Shown: in pieces, positions 61,271 through 64,000 of the stretch
How positions within the stretch are numbered: the stretch's first letter is position 1
How the letters are laid out: every line of letters starts with the position of its first letter
Assembly (NCBI RefSeq): GCF_003363265.1
Contig: NZ_QRBF01000002.1
Location: 369,741 to 433,740, forward strand
From: Dyella psychrodurans
GTDB lineage: Bacteria; Pseudomonadota; Gammaproteobacteria; Xanthomonadales; Rhodanobacteraceae
Reading direction: 5' to 3'
Length of the DNA: 64,000 nt
Made by a program: the position numbers and the translations under genes
Notes under the pieces: generated by a model
What the model was told of the DNA's origin: nothing
Databases searched by the model: none
What the model saw: only the letters and a program-made list of their open reading frames with translations

Positions 61271-61869
61271 TCCGCGTCCTGTTGGCCGAAGATCAAGCGA
61301 TGGTGCGTGGCGCGTTGTCGGCGTTGTTGAATCTCGAATCGGATATCGAAGTGCTTGGTTCCGCATCTGACGGCGAATCCGCATGGCGCGAAGTGCAGCG
61401 GCTGAAACCGGATGTGCTGGTGACGGATATCGAAATGCCAGGCATCACCGGGCTCGAACTCGTGCAGCGCATACAGCGCTACGAATTGCCGGTGAAGTCG
61501 ATCATCGTCACCACGTTCGCGCGGCCCGGCTTTTTGCGTCGCGCGCTGGATGCGGGAGTGTCTGGTTACTTGTTGAAAGACGCGCCCGCGGAAAATCTCG
61601 CCGAAGCGTTGCGCACGGTGCACCGCGGCGGTCGCTCGATCGATCCGCAACTGGCCTTGGAAGCCTGGTCCGAAGCCGACCCGTTGAACGATCGCGAACG
61701 GCAAGTATTGCGCTTCGCTGGCGAAGGATTATCGGCGAGCGATATCGCCACGAAACTCAATCTCTCGCACGGCACCGTGCGCAATTATCTTTCCGAAGCC
61801 ATCGGTAAGTTGGGTGCGGCCAACCGTATCGAGGCATATCGATTGGCGCGACAAAAAGGCTGGTTATAG
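61267..61869 (+). CDS. DesR-like LuxR-type response regulator
   Basis: 200 residues from ATG 61267 (ATGA overlap with the kinase gene). The receiver has LLAEDQAMVRGALSALL, D54 in VLVTDIEMPGITGLEL, and T and K in IIVTTFARPGFLRRALDAG and GYLLKDAPAENLAEAL. The helix-turn-helix is NDRERQVLRFAGEGLSASDIATKLNLSHGTVRNYLSEAIGKLGA. It closes the ABC-DesK-DesR operon. No terminator is visible right after the stop. Confidence 0.93.
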   Translation: MIRVLLAEDQAMVRGALSALLNLESDIEVLGSASDGESAWREVQRLKPDVLVTDIEMPGITGLELVQRIQRYELPVKSIIVTTFARPGFLRRALDAGVSGYLLKDAPAENLAEALRTVHRGGRSIDPQLALEAWSEADPLNDRERQVLRFAGEGLSASDIATKLNLSHGTVRNYLSEAIGKLGAANRIEAYRLARQKGWL

Positions 61870-61971
61870 GAATTATTCTTAATCATTAAAAATTCACTTG
61901 CATTGCGAATTTTGCTCGCGTAATGTTCGCCTCCTTCGCCAATATCGGCGATTTAACCTGCGGAATTTTTC

Positions 61972-62085
61972 ATGACGTATCACTTCGCCAACGCTGCTTT
62001 GCCATCGCGACTGAATCGCGATGCGATGCCGTGCGCGGTAATTGAACGCCATGCGCCGCGCAAAGGTTTCTTCCTGAAAGACTGA
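61972..62085 (+). CDS. Possible 37-residue leader peptide
   Basis: A short frame from ATG 61972 to TGA 62085. The peptide begins MTYHFANAALPSRLNRDAM and ends HAPRKGFFLKD, with two adjacent Phe codons near its stop. The stop codon overlaps the first base pairs of a chain of alternative hairpins ending in a terminator, the normal layout of an amino-acid leader. The ribosome site (GCGGAA, 61960-61965) is weak. It is not similar to any protein I know. Conservation in relatives would decide it. Confidence 0.45.
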   Translation: MTYHFANAALPSRLNRDAMPCAVIERHAPRKGFFLKD

Positions 62086-62169
62086 TCTCGCTCGTGGAGA
62101 TCGGTCACCCCGATCTCCCGAGGCAGCGCGAACGCCCTCGGGTCGCCACACCCGGGGGCGTTTTGTTTT
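62084..62169 (+). promoter_or_regulatory. Attenuator-like RNA with four overlapping hairpins and terminator
   Basis: Successive stems share strands: GATCTC/GAGATC (62084-62102); GAGATCGG/CCGATCTC (62097-62117); CCCGAGG/CCTCGGG (62117-62142); and the terminator CGCCCTCGGGT/ACCCGGGGGCG (62133-62160) followed by TTTTGTTTT. Each stem excludes its neighbour, so stalling of a ribosome on the short frame upstream would decide whether the terminator forms. No biosynthetic gene follows. The next features are the tRNA-like pair and the slipin gene. Confidence 0.6.
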
Positions 62170-62412
62170 GGGCGTTCGAGAAGGATGCGCATGCATCGAA
62201 AAATGTTTTGGAATGCGATTTCCGGAAGTTTTCTTCCGCCCTGAAGCATCCGGTCGTGCAAGCGGCCGAGGCATAGGCGCGGCTGCGACAAGCGCATGTG
62301 CGCTGCGCCTGGATGCTTCGGCGCGGGCGGTGCGGGAATCGAATTTCATCACTTTAGGCGTTTTCGCCTTAATGCATTGCCGATTTGAAAGTCGGTAATA
62401 CGCAGCATTAAT

Positions 62413-62428
62413 CGGCAGGTTTTCAGCG
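62413..62428 (+). promoter_or_regulatory. Weak sigma-54-like promoter motif
   Basis: CGGCAGGTTTTCAGCG has the GG-N10-GC spacing (GG at 62414, GC at 62426) and the GGCA of the -24 box, but CAGC replaces TTGC at -12. It would start transcription about 70 bases before the tRNA-like pair. RNA-repair (rtc) operons are sigma-54 dependent through RtcR, which is why it is listed. On sequence alone the match is marginal. Confidence 0.2.
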
Positions 62429-62508
62429 GTTCGGGTTCCAAGGCCCGTCCGGTGCGCGCGGCTGTGCCGCCAGCGTATGCCGAGGCATGTACGAGAGTGT
62501 TGCGACTG

Positions 62509-62577
62509 TGACGTTAGCTTAGAGGTCAAGCAGCGGTGTATGCCGTGCACGCCGGTTCGATTCCGGCACGTCAACCA
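62509..62577 (+). ncRNA. Degenerate tRNA-like sequence 1 (with CCA)
   Basis: Ends TGACGT (62509-62514) and ACGTCA (62568-62573) pair perfectly for 6 bp and are followed by ACCA. A D-arm GCTT-AGAGGTC-AAGC and a full T-arm GCCGG-TTCGATT-CCGGC are present. The middle 19 bases (AGCGGTGTATGCCGTGCAC) are 3-4 nt too short for a normal anticodon arm plus variable loop and fold only as an irregular stem. It cannot be an ordinary tRNA, but keeps the features recognised by CCA-binding and T-arm-binding proteins. Confidence 0.55.
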
Positions 62578-62649
62578 CTGGATAGCTCAGTTGGGTAGAG
62601 CATCGGACTGTTAATCCGAGTGTCGCGGGTTCGAATCCTGCTCCAAACA
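62576..62649 (+). tRNA. Degenerate tRNA-Asn(GUU)-like sequence 2
   Basis: The D-arm TAGCTCAGTTGGGTAGAGC, anticodon arm TCGGA-CTGTTAA-TCCGA (anticodon GTT) and T-arm GCGGG-TTCGAAT-CCTGC are all intact. The acceptor stem pairs only in its inner four base pairs (TGGA/TCCA), the outer three do not match, and GGG replaces CCA. It begins inside the CCA of the preceding tRNA-like sequence. It is therefore a tRNA-Asn pseudogene or a deliberate tRNA mimic rather than a charging-competent tRNA. Confidence 0.6.
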
Positions 62650-63048
62650 GGGAATGCGAGTTCCCTCACAACGGAAACACCTCATGCGTTGCCTGGCGCG
62701 ATGGCCAGGGAAGGCTTTCAGCCAGACAGCGCAGCGAGTATGGAACCGGATGTTTGCCCCGAATGCGCGCGGGTGATCGTCGAGAGATGTTTATGCGGCG
62801 TGCCGTATCGACAGATCGAAGCGACAACCTCCACGCACAAGGCGTGATCGTCCCGCGCCACATTCGTGCAGAGGTGTTTCCACCTTATTCGATGTTGTCG
62901 ACGCTCGTTCAATATCGGGCGCGATGGTCCCGCGAGGGAGGCGGCACTGCGCCGTCGATGTGTTGAACAGGTTATCCCGCGGGAACGGTCCATCCGCGCG
63001 AATGGCCAAATCACATGGACCAAGCCAGGAATGAAAAGGAGTATTCCC
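62650..63048 (+). other. Structured leader before the slipin gene
   Basis: About 400 bp with several perfect small hairpins: AGGGAA/TTCCCT (62649-62666), CCTGGC/GCCAGG (62692-62709), TCCCGCGGGA (62975-62984) and GGTCCAT/ATGGACC (62987-63021), the last ending 16 bases before the slipin ribosome site. Apart from the 35-residue frame at 62740 no gene is visible. The density of stems suggests a long structured 5' leader continuous with the tRNA-like pair. Confidence 0.4.
62740..62847 (+). CDS. Possible 35-residue protein with CPEC and CLC motifs
   Basis: The short frame begins MEPDVCPECARVIVERCLCG. CxxC followed by CxC eight residues later could ligate zinc. An in-frame ATG at 62701 would give 48 residues. 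The ribosome site is poor. It lies between the tRNA-like pair and the slipin gene on the same strand. I cannot tell whether it is translated. Confidence 0.25.
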   Translation: MEPDVCPECARVIVERCLCGVPYRQIEATTSTHKA

Positions 63049-64000
63049 ATGTTCTGGATCAAGCAAATCGTGATCGGCGACGGCGAGCGCGGTTTGCTGT
63101 ATCGCAACCGTCGACTGCAAGCTGTACTGCAAGCGGGCGTGTACCGCTACTTCGATCCGTTCGATCGGACCGCGGTCGTCGTGCACAACGTGGCCCGTCC
63201 GGAATACGCCGGCAATGATGCCGAGGTGCTGATGGGTTCGATGGACGCCAAGTTGGCCGCGCATTTCGTGCTGGCCGACGTCGCTACGGATCAGGTTGGT
63301 CTCGTGTTGAAGAACGGCAAGCTCGAGGACGTGCTGGTGCCGGGTACGCGCAAGCTGTACTGGAAGGATCTGGTACCGGTTGAGGTGCGCCTGGTGTCGA
63401 TGGCCGAAACGTTGGATGTCGATGCCGATGTGCTCGGTCGTCTGCGTCAGCTCGGTGTGCTTGCCAAGGTCGCCGTGACGGTCGACGTGCCGGTCGAGTC
63501 GGCGGGCCTGCTGTTCGTCGATGGCAAGCTGGTGCGTACGCTGAAGCCGGGTGCTTATGCCTTCTGGAATTTCCGGAAGAACGTGGCGGCCGAGGTGATC
63601 GACCAGCGCGTGCAGTCGCTGGAAGTGTCAGGTCAGGAACTGTTGACCCGCGACAAGGTGAGCCTGCGTGTGAACCTTGCGGCGAGTCTGCGCGTGGTCG
63701 ATCCGGTCGCGGCGCGTACGAAGGTTGCCAAGTACGGTGACTATCTGTACCGCGAGTTGCAGTACGGACTGCGCAAGGCGGTATCGGCCAAGACGCTCGA
63801 CGAACTGCTCGGCGACAAGGCCTCGCTGGATGCCGACATCTTCGCGTACGTACACGGGCGCGTCGGTGAGTTGGGCCTGGAAGTGCTCGGCGTGGGTGTC
63901 AAGGACGTCATCCTGCCGGGCGACATGAAGGAGATCCTCAACAGCGTGGTGCAGGCGGAGAAGGCGGCGCAGGCCAACGTCATCCGTCGTCGCGAGGAGG
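63049..64000 (+). CDS. Slipin/SPFH (band 7) family protein, partial at window end
   Basis: The frame is open from ATG 63049 (AGGAG 7 bp upstream) to the window end, 317 codons, without a stop. The SPFH domain follows a triplicated N-terminal motif: GERGLLYRNRRLQAVLQAGV, QVGLVLKNGKLEDVLVPGTR and AGLLFVDGKLVRTLKPGAYA. It then has FWNFRKNVAAEVIDQRVQSLEVSGQELLTRDKVSLRVNLAASLRV and DYLYRELQYGLRKAVSAKTLDELL. There is no clear membrane helix. Related slipins occur beside RtcB RNA ligase genes in RNA-repair operons, a link that cannot be checked here. Confidence 0.88.
   Translation, partial: MFWIKQIVIGDGERGLLYRNRRLQAVLQAGVYRYFDPFDRTAVVVHNVARPEYAGNDAEVLMGSMDAKLAAHFVLADVATDQVGLVLKNGKLEDVLVPGTRKLYWKDLVPVEVRLVSMAETLDVDADVLGRLRQLGVLAKVAVTVDVPVESAGLLFVDGKLVRTLKPGAYAFWNFRKNVAAEVIDQRVQSLEVSGQELLTRDKVSLRVNLAASLRVVDPVAARTKVAKYGDYLYRELQYGLRKAVSAKTLDELLGDKASLDADIFAYVHGRVGELGLEVLGVGVKDVILPGDMKEILNSVVQAEKAAQANVIRRREE

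What the first reader, a model, noticed from the sequence alone, without database searches (positions are those of the whole stretch)
62509..64000. Two abutting degenerate tRNA-like sequences at the head of a slipin gene: possible RNA-repair locus
The sequence shows a CCA-ending tRNA-like element with no proper anticodon arm, immediately fused to a tRNA-Asn-like element with perfect D, anticodon and T arms but a broken acceptor. A stem-rich leader and a slipin gene follow on the same strand. Slipins are established neighbours of RtcB/RtcA RNA-repair genes, and Y RNAs with tRNA-like modules occur in some of those operons. A tandem tRNA mimic transcribed with a slipin could be the RNA sensor or substrate of such a system. 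The link to Rtc genes is inference, since the downstream genes lie outside the window.
Basis: partly seen in the sequence, partly recalled or inferred. Interest (0 to 1): 0.78.

Follow-up and report, generated by a model that had tools for sequence, protein, structure and literature searches.

The report
Conserved tRNA-mimic RNA heading RNA-repair operon
What looked like two decayed tRNA genes is the centre of a large conserved structured RNA that sits in front of a slipin gene, here followed by the RNA-repair ligase RtcB, and that in this group of bacteria is preceded by what looks like a switch that turns the genes on when protein synthesis falters.

Summary
The two tRNA-like elements (62508-62576, 62579-62645) are real and not decayed tRNAs. 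They are the core of a covarying RNA: 95.6% of cells paired, 30 of 37 pairs with compensatory changes in 57 rows. One or more T-arms lie upstream of slipin in 126 of 130 loci collected by slipin. After slipin, outside the window, comes RtcB. Anticodon triplets differ between species. The RNA also has a three-way-junction domain (62398-62506) and a long-range helix; in Xanthomonadales it is preceded by a sigma70 promoter (63 of 66), a 33-46-codon leader ORF ending on the first strand of alternative helices (59 of 61) and a terminator: a translation-coupled attenuator by anatomy. This genome has no RtcR or RtcA; in 8 of 55 other loci rtcR adjoins the unit, 6 with a sigma54 motif. An E. coli version is in 1,624 of 5,426 genomes. 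Rfam knows only the tRNA-like parts. Function of the RNA (decoy, substrate or scaffold) is inferred.

The parts
61898..61926 (+). sigma70-type promoter: -35 TTGCAT (61898-61903), 17-nt spacer, -10 TAATGT (61921-61926)
   Evidence: TTGnnn-(16-18)-TAnnnT at the aligned place in 63 of 66 leaders (3 more of the 69 too short), against 55 of 3450 random windows of the same leaders
61972..62085 (+). leader ORF (37 codons, ATG..TGA); stop codon lies in region 1 of the attenuator
   Evidence: in the 61 of 69 leaders with ATG at this place the frame stops 11-24 nt before P2 in 59; the other frames stop in the -30..-5 window in 3 and 4; amino-acid sequence near neutral
62080..62106 (+). attenuator helix P1: GACTGATC 62080-62087 with GATCGGTC 62099-62106
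   Evidence: 90.2% of cells paired in 51 rows, slid versions at most 53.8%
62096..62118 (+). attenuator helix P2: GGAGATCGG with CCGATCTCC, exclusive with P1
   Evidence: 99.3% paired, slid versions at most 62.1%
62117..62142 (+). attenuator helix P3 (antiterminator): CCCGAGG with CCTCGGG
   Evidence: core of 5 pairs counted, 95.1% paired, slid versions at most 62.1%
62133..62169 (+). intrinsic terminator P4 (62133-62143/62150-62160) followed by TTTTGTTTT
   Evidence: 92.5% paired, 7 of 11 pairs with changes on both sides
62129..62178 (+). helix P5: CGAACGCC with GGCGTTCG, spanning the terminator (needs read-through)
   Evidence: 91.3% paired, 3 of 8 pairs with changes on both sides
62243..62319 (+). 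helix 62243-62247/62315-62319 of the read-through RNA
   Evidence: covariation scan
62398..62506 (+). domain A: three-way junction with a highly conserved GGTGCGC...GCGTATGCC hairpin
   Evidence: 23 pairs, 14 with changes on both sides in 50 rows; model R1 finds it in 39 of 53 slipin loci outside the training set at E<=0.05
62508..62576 (+). tRNA-like element 1
   Evidence: ARAGORN; Rfam 35.5 bits; covariation
62579..62645 (+). tRNA-like element 2; anticodon loop CTGTTAA here, other triplets in relatives; 4-bp acceptor
   Evidence: Rfam 55.8 bits
62649..62666 (+). hairpin AGGGAA/TTCCCT after the tandem
   Evidence: covarying columns 62653-62654/62661-62662
62673..62881 (+). 3' domain closed by an 11-bp long-range helix (62673-62683 with 62871-62881)
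   Evidence: 9-12 bp found in 42 of 59 leaders, in several compensatory versions, no shuffled control; covarying pairs 62675-62680/62874-62879 and nested pairs
63049..64000 (+). slipin / SPFH gene (374 aa; continues past the window; RtcB follows outside the window at G000:C9:434000-435223)

Best explanation
The locus makes a long structured RNA with two side-by-side tRNA-like domains, joined to a slipin and here to the RNA ligase RtcB, as one inducible RNA-repair unit. In Xanthomonadales a translation-coupled attenuator controls it. A ribosome that finishes the leader ORF covers region 1, P2 forms, region 4 is left free and the terminator forms (OFF). If ribosomes fail to reach the stop (damaged or missing tRNAs, arrested ribosomes), P1 and P3 form, the terminator is pre-empted and RNA polymerase reads through into the tRNA-like RNA, slipin and RtcB (ON). 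In some other Pseudomonadota the same kind of unit appears to be switched by RtcR/sigma54. Shown: the RNA folds, the leader ORF, the exclusive helices and the gene order. Inferred with good support: the attenuator logic. Inferred with weak support: that the tandem tRNA mimic then acts as a decoy or substrate for tRNA-cutting or tRNA-handling enzymes, gathered with RtcB on a slipin oligomer.
For: Covariation in every domain (101 for the long-range helix). Anticodon triplet not conserved while D arm, T arm and stem pairing are. Leader ORF ends in region 1 in 59 of 61 leaders and its peptide is near neutral. Nascent RNA up to region 4: with region 1 free, mean probabilities P1 0.67 and P3 0.72; with region 1 masked, P2 0.99 and P3 0.32 (51 leaders; in the window P1 1.0 and P3 1.0 against P2 1.0 and P3 0.06). 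Promoter conserved. RtcB next to slipin in 17 of 20 loci of the family. rtcR beside the unit in 8 of 55 other loci, 6 of them with the sigma54 pattern; no RtcR here. Precedent: PMC12057347 (passages) describes a proposed transcriptional attenuation by leader peptide PA5471.1 with stalled ribosomes in front of armZ, called there an RtcB-like RNA ligase.
Against: No expression data. At equilibrium the terminator wins with or without region 1, so the switch must be kinetic; with region 1 masked P3 still exceeds 0.5 in 15 of 51 leaders, and with it free P1 exceeds 0.5 in only 36 and P3 in 38 of 51. For P1 and P2 the number of pairs with changes on both sides is not above the shuffles (149 and 229 of 500 reach it), although the cells with such changes are (0 of 500). 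8 of 69 leaders lack the ATG and 8 of 69 lack the P2 pattern. For 47 of the 55 other loci no RtcR was seen in the DNA held, so their control is unknown. The loci were collected by slipin, so their RNA-slipin link is partly by design; in the slipin-blind class search only 4 of 21 slipin genomes gave a linked domain A hit. Two genomes have slipin and the RNA but no RtcB at E<=1e-60 (G032, G048), and 28 of 80 loci have no RtcB downstream in the DNA held (25 none, 3 upstream). Nothing here tests decoy, substrate or scaffold; the RNA could act only in cis.
Confidence: 0.68

Rival explanations
1. The tandem tRNA-like region is a processing signal: RNase P (and 3' tRNA-processing enzymes) cut at the two elements so that the slipin-rtcB mRNA is released with a new 5' end. 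The rest of the leader only stabilises it.
For: Conserved D and T arms give the elbow that tRNA-processing enzymes read (the enzymology is recalled). Many element-1 copies end in CCA (by eye). Some relatives have a near-complete tRNA as element 1 (L027).
Against: The acceptor stems that could be counted have 6 and 4 pairs. The processing idea gives no reason for domain A and the 3' domain to be conserved.
Confidence: 0.15
2. The RNA is the RNA part of a stable ribonucleoprotein with the slipin (a ring or cage, as SPFH proteins form), in the way Y RNA serves Ro60 or vault RNA serves the vault. The tRNA-like domains are docking handles for tRNA-binding proteins.
For: Loci with slipin and the RNA but no RtcB exist. 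SPFH relatives with solved structures include stomatin, HflK/C, prohibitin and flotillin complexes. Foldseek lists major vault protein at rank 11 (E 7.1e-11).
Against: The N-terminal half alone gives no match at E<=0.001 and no vault protein in the 50 rows shown. Pfam recognises only Band_7 domains in most of 42 slipins, no RNA-binding domain.
Confidence: 0.25
3. The tRNA-like RNA feeds RtcR: when it is cut by a tRNA-cleaving enzyme its fragments sustain RtcR activation (positive feedback) in the genomes that keep RtcR.
For: RtcR binds tRNA 5' fragments ending in 2',3'-cyclic phosphate (PMC7790460, passages). rtcR adjoins the unit in 8 of 55 other loci.
Against: The window genome has no RtcR. 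PMC9650030 reports that tRNA fragments did not activate RtcR for transcription in vitro (passages).
Confidence: 0.1
4. The elements are decayed tRNA genes left by an old tRNA cluster or integration event.
For: tRNA similarity; no readable anticodon in element 1.
Against: 30 of 37 pairs show changes on both sides in 57 rows. T-arms are upstream in 126 of 130 slipin loci, two or more in 113.
Confidence: 0.01

Closest known systems
rsr-yrlBA-rtcBA RNA-repair operon with YrlA Y RNA (Salmonella; PMC7790460, passages read)
   Same: A noncoding RNA with a tRNA-like domain encoded with RtcB; some relatives of the unit here also lie beside rtcR
   Different: Rfam's YrlA model has 114 positions; here two tRNA-like domains lie inside a leader of about 1.1 kb, the partner gene is a slipin, there is no Ro60 in the genome, and the YrlA score is 23.6 against a gathering score of 69
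PA5471.1 leader peptide-armZ attenuator (Pseudomonas aeruginosa; PMC12057347, passages read)
   Same: Leader ORF and a proposed transcription attenuation that responds to impaired ribosomes; the gene controlled encodes an RtcB-like ligase
   Different: Here RtcB itself is in the unit, preceded by a large tRNA-mimic RNA and a slipin; sequence relationship of the leaders not tested
Large ornate RNAs GOLLD, ROOL, OLE (PMC12286853, search listing and start of abstract only)
   Same: Long structured bacterial RNAs
   Different: No Rfam match to them in the leader (that they are in Rfam is recalled); here the RNA contains tandem tRNA-like domains and lies before slipin
paFlo8 SPFH gene inside the rtc locus of P. 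aeruginosa PA14 (PMC13086221, passages read)
   Same: An SPFH gene embedded with rtcA, rtcB and rtcR
   Different: The passages read do not describe an RNA; orthology to the slipin here not tested

Membership tests
Canonical tRNA gene | tRNA fold above the Rfam gathering score | tested here: met
   35.5 and 55.8 bits against 29
Canonical tRNA gene | Conserved readable anticodon and 7-bp acceptor | tested here: not met
   Element 2: 47 of 57 loops have 7 nt, with many different triplets; acceptors of 6 and 4 counted pairs; element 1 has no readable anticodon
YrlA / bacterial Y RNA | Rfam RF02553 above gathering | tested here: not met
   23.6 bits against 69
YrlA / bacterial Y RNA | Ro60 (TROVE) in the genome | tested here: not met
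   PF05731 0 of 1 genome; control rang in Deinobacterium
Ribosome-mediated transcription attenuator | Leader ORF ending at the first strand of alternative helices | tested here: met
   59 of 61 leaders with the ATG, 8 of 69 without it
Ribosome-mediated transcription attenuator | Mutually exclusive helices and an intrinsic terminator | tested here: met
Ribosome-mediated transcription attenuator | Readthrough depends on translation of the leader ORF | not testable with these tools
   needs a reporter assay
RtcR-controlled rtcBA operon | RtcB present | tested here: met
   Pfam RtcB 8e-126
RtcR-controlled rtcBA operon | RtcR and RtcA present in this genome | tested here: not met
   PF06956 and PF01137 0 of 1; E. 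coli control rang in both
SPFH slipin | Band_7/SPFH domain | tested here: met
   Pfam 2.2e-28; PDB stomatin 3.7e-30 with the alignment
Major vault protein / vault RNA | N-terminal vault repeats | tested here: inconclusive
   Full model matches vault protein at rank 11; N-terminal model has no match at E<=0.001 and no vault protein in the 50 rows shown; a missing match is weak evidence
Other Rfam families (T-box, GOLLD, ROOL, OLE and the rest) | Rfam match above gathering in the leader | tested here: not met
   61850-63100 at E<=5: 6 matches listed, only the two tRNA ones above gathering

The most novel reading that the evidence does not exclude
A previously undescribed class of large noncoding RNA, built around a three-way-junction domain and tandem tRNA mimics with swappable anticodon loops, is the RNA half of a slipin ribonucleoprotein spread across Pseudomonadota. 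It acts as a tRNA decoy or repair platform for RtcB, and its control has been exchanged in evolution between RtcR/sigma54 and a leader-ORF attenuator.
Probability: 0.35. Interest if true: 0.9.

Novelty: new variant of a known kind. Interest (0 to 1): 0.8.

Why it matters
What bacterial RtcB repairs in vivo, and what the tRNA-mimic RNAs near Rtc genes do, are open questions. This RNA is conserved before slipin in Pseudomonadota yet easy to miss: it carries no annotation in the ten E. coli records looked at, and ARAGORN calls parts of it tRNA genes in several others. In Xanthomonadales it lies behind a conserved, testable switch that predicts what turns RNA repair on: failing translation. A version in 1,624 of 5,426 E. 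coli genomes brings part of the question within reach of a standard laboratory host.

Tried and rejected
Decayed tRNA copy: rejected by covariation and conservation. Ro60/Y RNA: rejected. Circularly permuted tRNA across the junction of the two elements, suggested by the weak YrlA match: I saw no acceptor hairpin at the junction by eye; not pursued. Vault-like slipin: the full model matches major vault protein, the N-terminal half alone does not; kept only as a rival. Amino-acid-specific sensing by the leader peptide: 59 ORFs show no run longer than 3 of one residue, so general translation is favoured; composition differs somewhat from slipin and RtcB (more A, R, P, H, C) and was not tested further. 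Phage origin: the 20 phage rows shown (of 444 records) match only about a third of the query, in the tRNA-like part, mostly under tRNA genes. Thermodynamic folding of 62398-62900 alone gives z = -3.37 but does not recover the tandem cleanly, so the structure rests on covariation. The pattern for paired T-arms first missed variants and was loosened.

Rows dropped: from the 100 loci L008-L107, the 22 outside Xanthomonadales and close relatives (L086-L107), six duplicates (L028, L031, L032, L070, L074, L077), two truncated (L029, L064) and L011 (5' part replaced) were left out of the 69-leader alignment. Alignments A2, A3 and A4 used 51, 50 and 57 rows taken from the lists. Six loci had no T-arm pair (L029, L064, L066, L068, L072, L075). 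One search dropped eight loci as duplicates but is not fully de-duplicated (for example L098 and L136 look identical). Its four loci without a T-arm are L141, L143, L150 and L170; L141 and L150 seem to read into coding sequence at the assumed place.
Full report
What was checked. The genome behind the window was found (G000:C9:369741-433740) and the DNA past the window end was read. After the slipin (374 aa, Band_7) comes RtcB (408 aa), then queA, tgt and, by my reading of the ORFs, secD and secF, all in the same direction. The genome has no RtcR and no RtcA and no TROVE/Ro60. An unnamed relative classed as the same genus (G066) shares contig length and leader sequence with Dyella acidisoli, so the host is probably a Dyella, family Rhodanobacteraceae (inference).

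The elements are conserved. The slipin occurs in 20 of 117 genomes of the family, with an RtcB next to it in 17 of these 20. A scan of named genomes with the slipin alignment gave 80 loci, of which 52 have RtcB downstream on the same strand, 3 upstream and 25 none within the DNA held. Over 130 slipin loci with at least 500 nt upstream, 113 have two or more T-arms 150-750 nt before the slipin, 13 have one and 4 have none; block-shuffled sequence gives about one locus in 130 with a single T-arm and none with two. These loci were collected by slipin and are not fully independent. In an alignment of 57 tandems, 95.6% of cells pair, 30 of 37 pairs show changes on both sides, and 225 cells have such a change against a shuffled mean of 53; slid structures pair 32-46%. 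In element 2, 47 of 57 anticodon loops have 7 nt but the triplets are many, CAT (8) and GTT (7) being the commonest, while the 5-bp stem covaries. Decoding is therefore not what is kept.

The RNA is larger. A covariation scan over 69 leaders (effective number 54) lists helices from 62243 to 62879; the attenuator helices vary too little to appear in it and were counted separately. Domain A (62398-62506) is a three-way junction with 23 pairs, 14 of them with changes on both sides. Its covariance model, built on 50 leaders, was searched in 53 slipin loci not used to build it and hits 39 upstream of the slipin at E 0.018 or better; 14 loci have no hit, and two further hits elsewhere in L102 and L167 are probably chance. 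In a search of 369 genomes of the class that did not ask for slipin, the four strongest of 23 matches (E 2.1e-8 or better; one is the window's own) lie upstream of a slipin. The other 19 (E 5.6e-5 or worse) are not on the contig of a slipin found, and 17 of the 21 slipin genomes gave no linked hit under that search's stricter filters. A long-range helix of 9-12 bp (62673-62683 with 62871-62881 here) is found in 42 of 59 leaders in several compensatory versions; no shuffled control was run. Rfam has no family for any of this beyond tRNA.

The switch in Xanthomonadales. A sigma70 promoter is conserved in 63 of 66 leaders long enough to show it. It is followed by a leader ORF: in the 61 of 69 leaders with an ATG at the aligned place, the frame ends 11-24 nt before helix P2 in 59, while the other two frames end in the -30..-5 window in 3 and 4. 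Eight leaders lack that ATG; the five Stenotrophomonas ones have TTG there. The 59 ORFs have 33-46 codons; in 11 close pairs the substitutions are near neutral for the amino acid (synonymous 28, non-synonymous 50; expected 21 and 57) and no residue runs longer than 3. So the act of translation, not the peptide, appears to be kept. Five helices follow, partly exclusive of each other: P1 90.2%, P2 99.3%, P3 95.1%, the terminator P4 92.5% and the spanning helix P5 91.3% of cells paired in 51 rows; their slid versions reach at most 53.8, 62.1, 62.1, 58.5 and 36.8%. The number of pairs with changes on both sides exceeds the shuffles for P3, P4 and P5 (4, 0 and 9 of 500 reach it) but not for P1 and P2 (149 and 229 of 500); the number of cells with such changes exceeds all 500 shuffles in all five. 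Folding the nascent RNA up to region 4 gives mean probabilities of 0.67 for P1 and 0.72 for P3 when region 1 is free, and 0.99 for P2 and 0.32 for P3 when region 1 is masked; in the window sequence P1 and P3 are 1.0, against P2 1.0 and P3 0.06. Once the terminator's second strand exists it wins in both cases (P4 0.94 and 0.96), as expected only of a switch decided during transcription. None of the 69 leaders carries the sigma54 pattern, and 61 of 69 carry the P2 hairpin pattern.

The same unit elsewhere. In 8 of the 55 loci outside the aligned leaders (the set) rtcR lies divergently upstream: Citrobacter L152, Burkholderia L153 and the unnamed L147, L158, L159, L160, L161, L164. The sigma54 pattern matched in L153, L158, L159, L160, L161 and L164; L152 has a variant seen by eye and L147 none; L151, the E. 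coli locus, has the pattern without rtcR beside it. Each of the eight carries RtcB or RlaP after slipin. T-arms are present in all eight, two or more in six and one in L152 and L164. The domain A model hits L147, L153 and L160; in L152, L158, L159, L161 and L164 I see domain A-like sequence only by eye. For the other 47 loci no RtcR was seen in the DNA held, so their control is unknown. The E. coli locus (slipin and RlaP, a reduced RNA with one T-arm) is in 1,624 of 5,426 complete genomes, on the chromosome, with no annotated feature under the ten matches shown. A slipin of this kind is in 23 of 398 genomes drawn from the phylum.

How it most likely works. Translation of the leader ORF keeps the unit off; failure of translation turns it on; the product is a tRNA-mimic RNA together with slipin and RtcB. 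Precedent for the switch: the PA5471.1 leader peptide in front of armZ, an RtcB-like ligase gene, for which transcriptional attenuation with stalled ribosomes is proposed (PMC12057347, passages). Precedent for tRNA damage as the Rtc signal: PMC7790460 (passages) and PMC9650030 (passages); [quoted passage not shown] What the RNA does once made is not shown. I favour a decoy or substrate role at a slipin oligomer, with low confidence: slipin with the RNA also occurs without RtcB (G032, G048), which argues that the RNA-slipin pair has a role of its own. AlphaFold gives a slipin model with pLDDT 84.5 and pTM 0.60, in which I read two extra small beta units before the SPFH domain; its best structural matches are stomatin and HflK/C, with major vault protein at rank 11, but the N-terminal half alone does not find the vault in the rows shown.

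Novelty. The paper searches made here listed no paper that I recognised as describing this RNA; only titles, starts of abstracts and the passages cited were seen, and two likely sources are not held. tRNA-mimic RNAs in Rtc operons and leader-ORF attenuators are known kinds, so I file this as a new variant; the RNA itself may prove to be a new class.

Noticed in passing
L151:4680-4870 (E. coli STEC639 record): A reduced version of the RNA before slipin and RlaP behind a sigma54-like motif; present in 1,624 of 5,426 complete E. coli genomes, with no annotated feature under the ten matches shown.
   Followed up: partly
L158:2916-3061, L159:2920-3065, L163:2989-3135, L157:2871-2942: ARAGORN reports parts of the RNA as tRNA-Leu, tRNA-Ile or undetermined tRNA genes, so annotation pipelines may count false tRNAs here.
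   Followed up: no
L062:7282-8160 and the similar gene in L073: A gene of about 293 aa between slipin and RtcB in two Lysobacter genomes; no Pfam match at E<=0.001 for the L062 protein.
   Followed up: no
L005:2217-2246: Perfect inverted repeat (12-bp arms, loop AGGGAA) directly after the slipin stop and before RtcB, with no T-tract.
   Followed up: no
L011 (upstream part, oriented): The far 5' part of this leader is replaced by unrelated sequence with long inverted repeats, while the tandem is kept.
   Followed up: no
L075, L078 (Arenimonas): rtcR lies upstream of slipin in leaders that also carry the attenuator helices, possibly an intermediate between the two control types.
   Followed up: no
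L086, L089, L095: Outside Xanthomonadales the second tRNA-like element can be reduced to little more than a T-arm (by eye).
   Followed up: no
G014, G019 and others: A second RtcB clade (62-68% identical to the window's RtcB), not beside the slipin; some genomes with it (G021, G040, G053, G091) also have the slipin unit.
   Followed up: no
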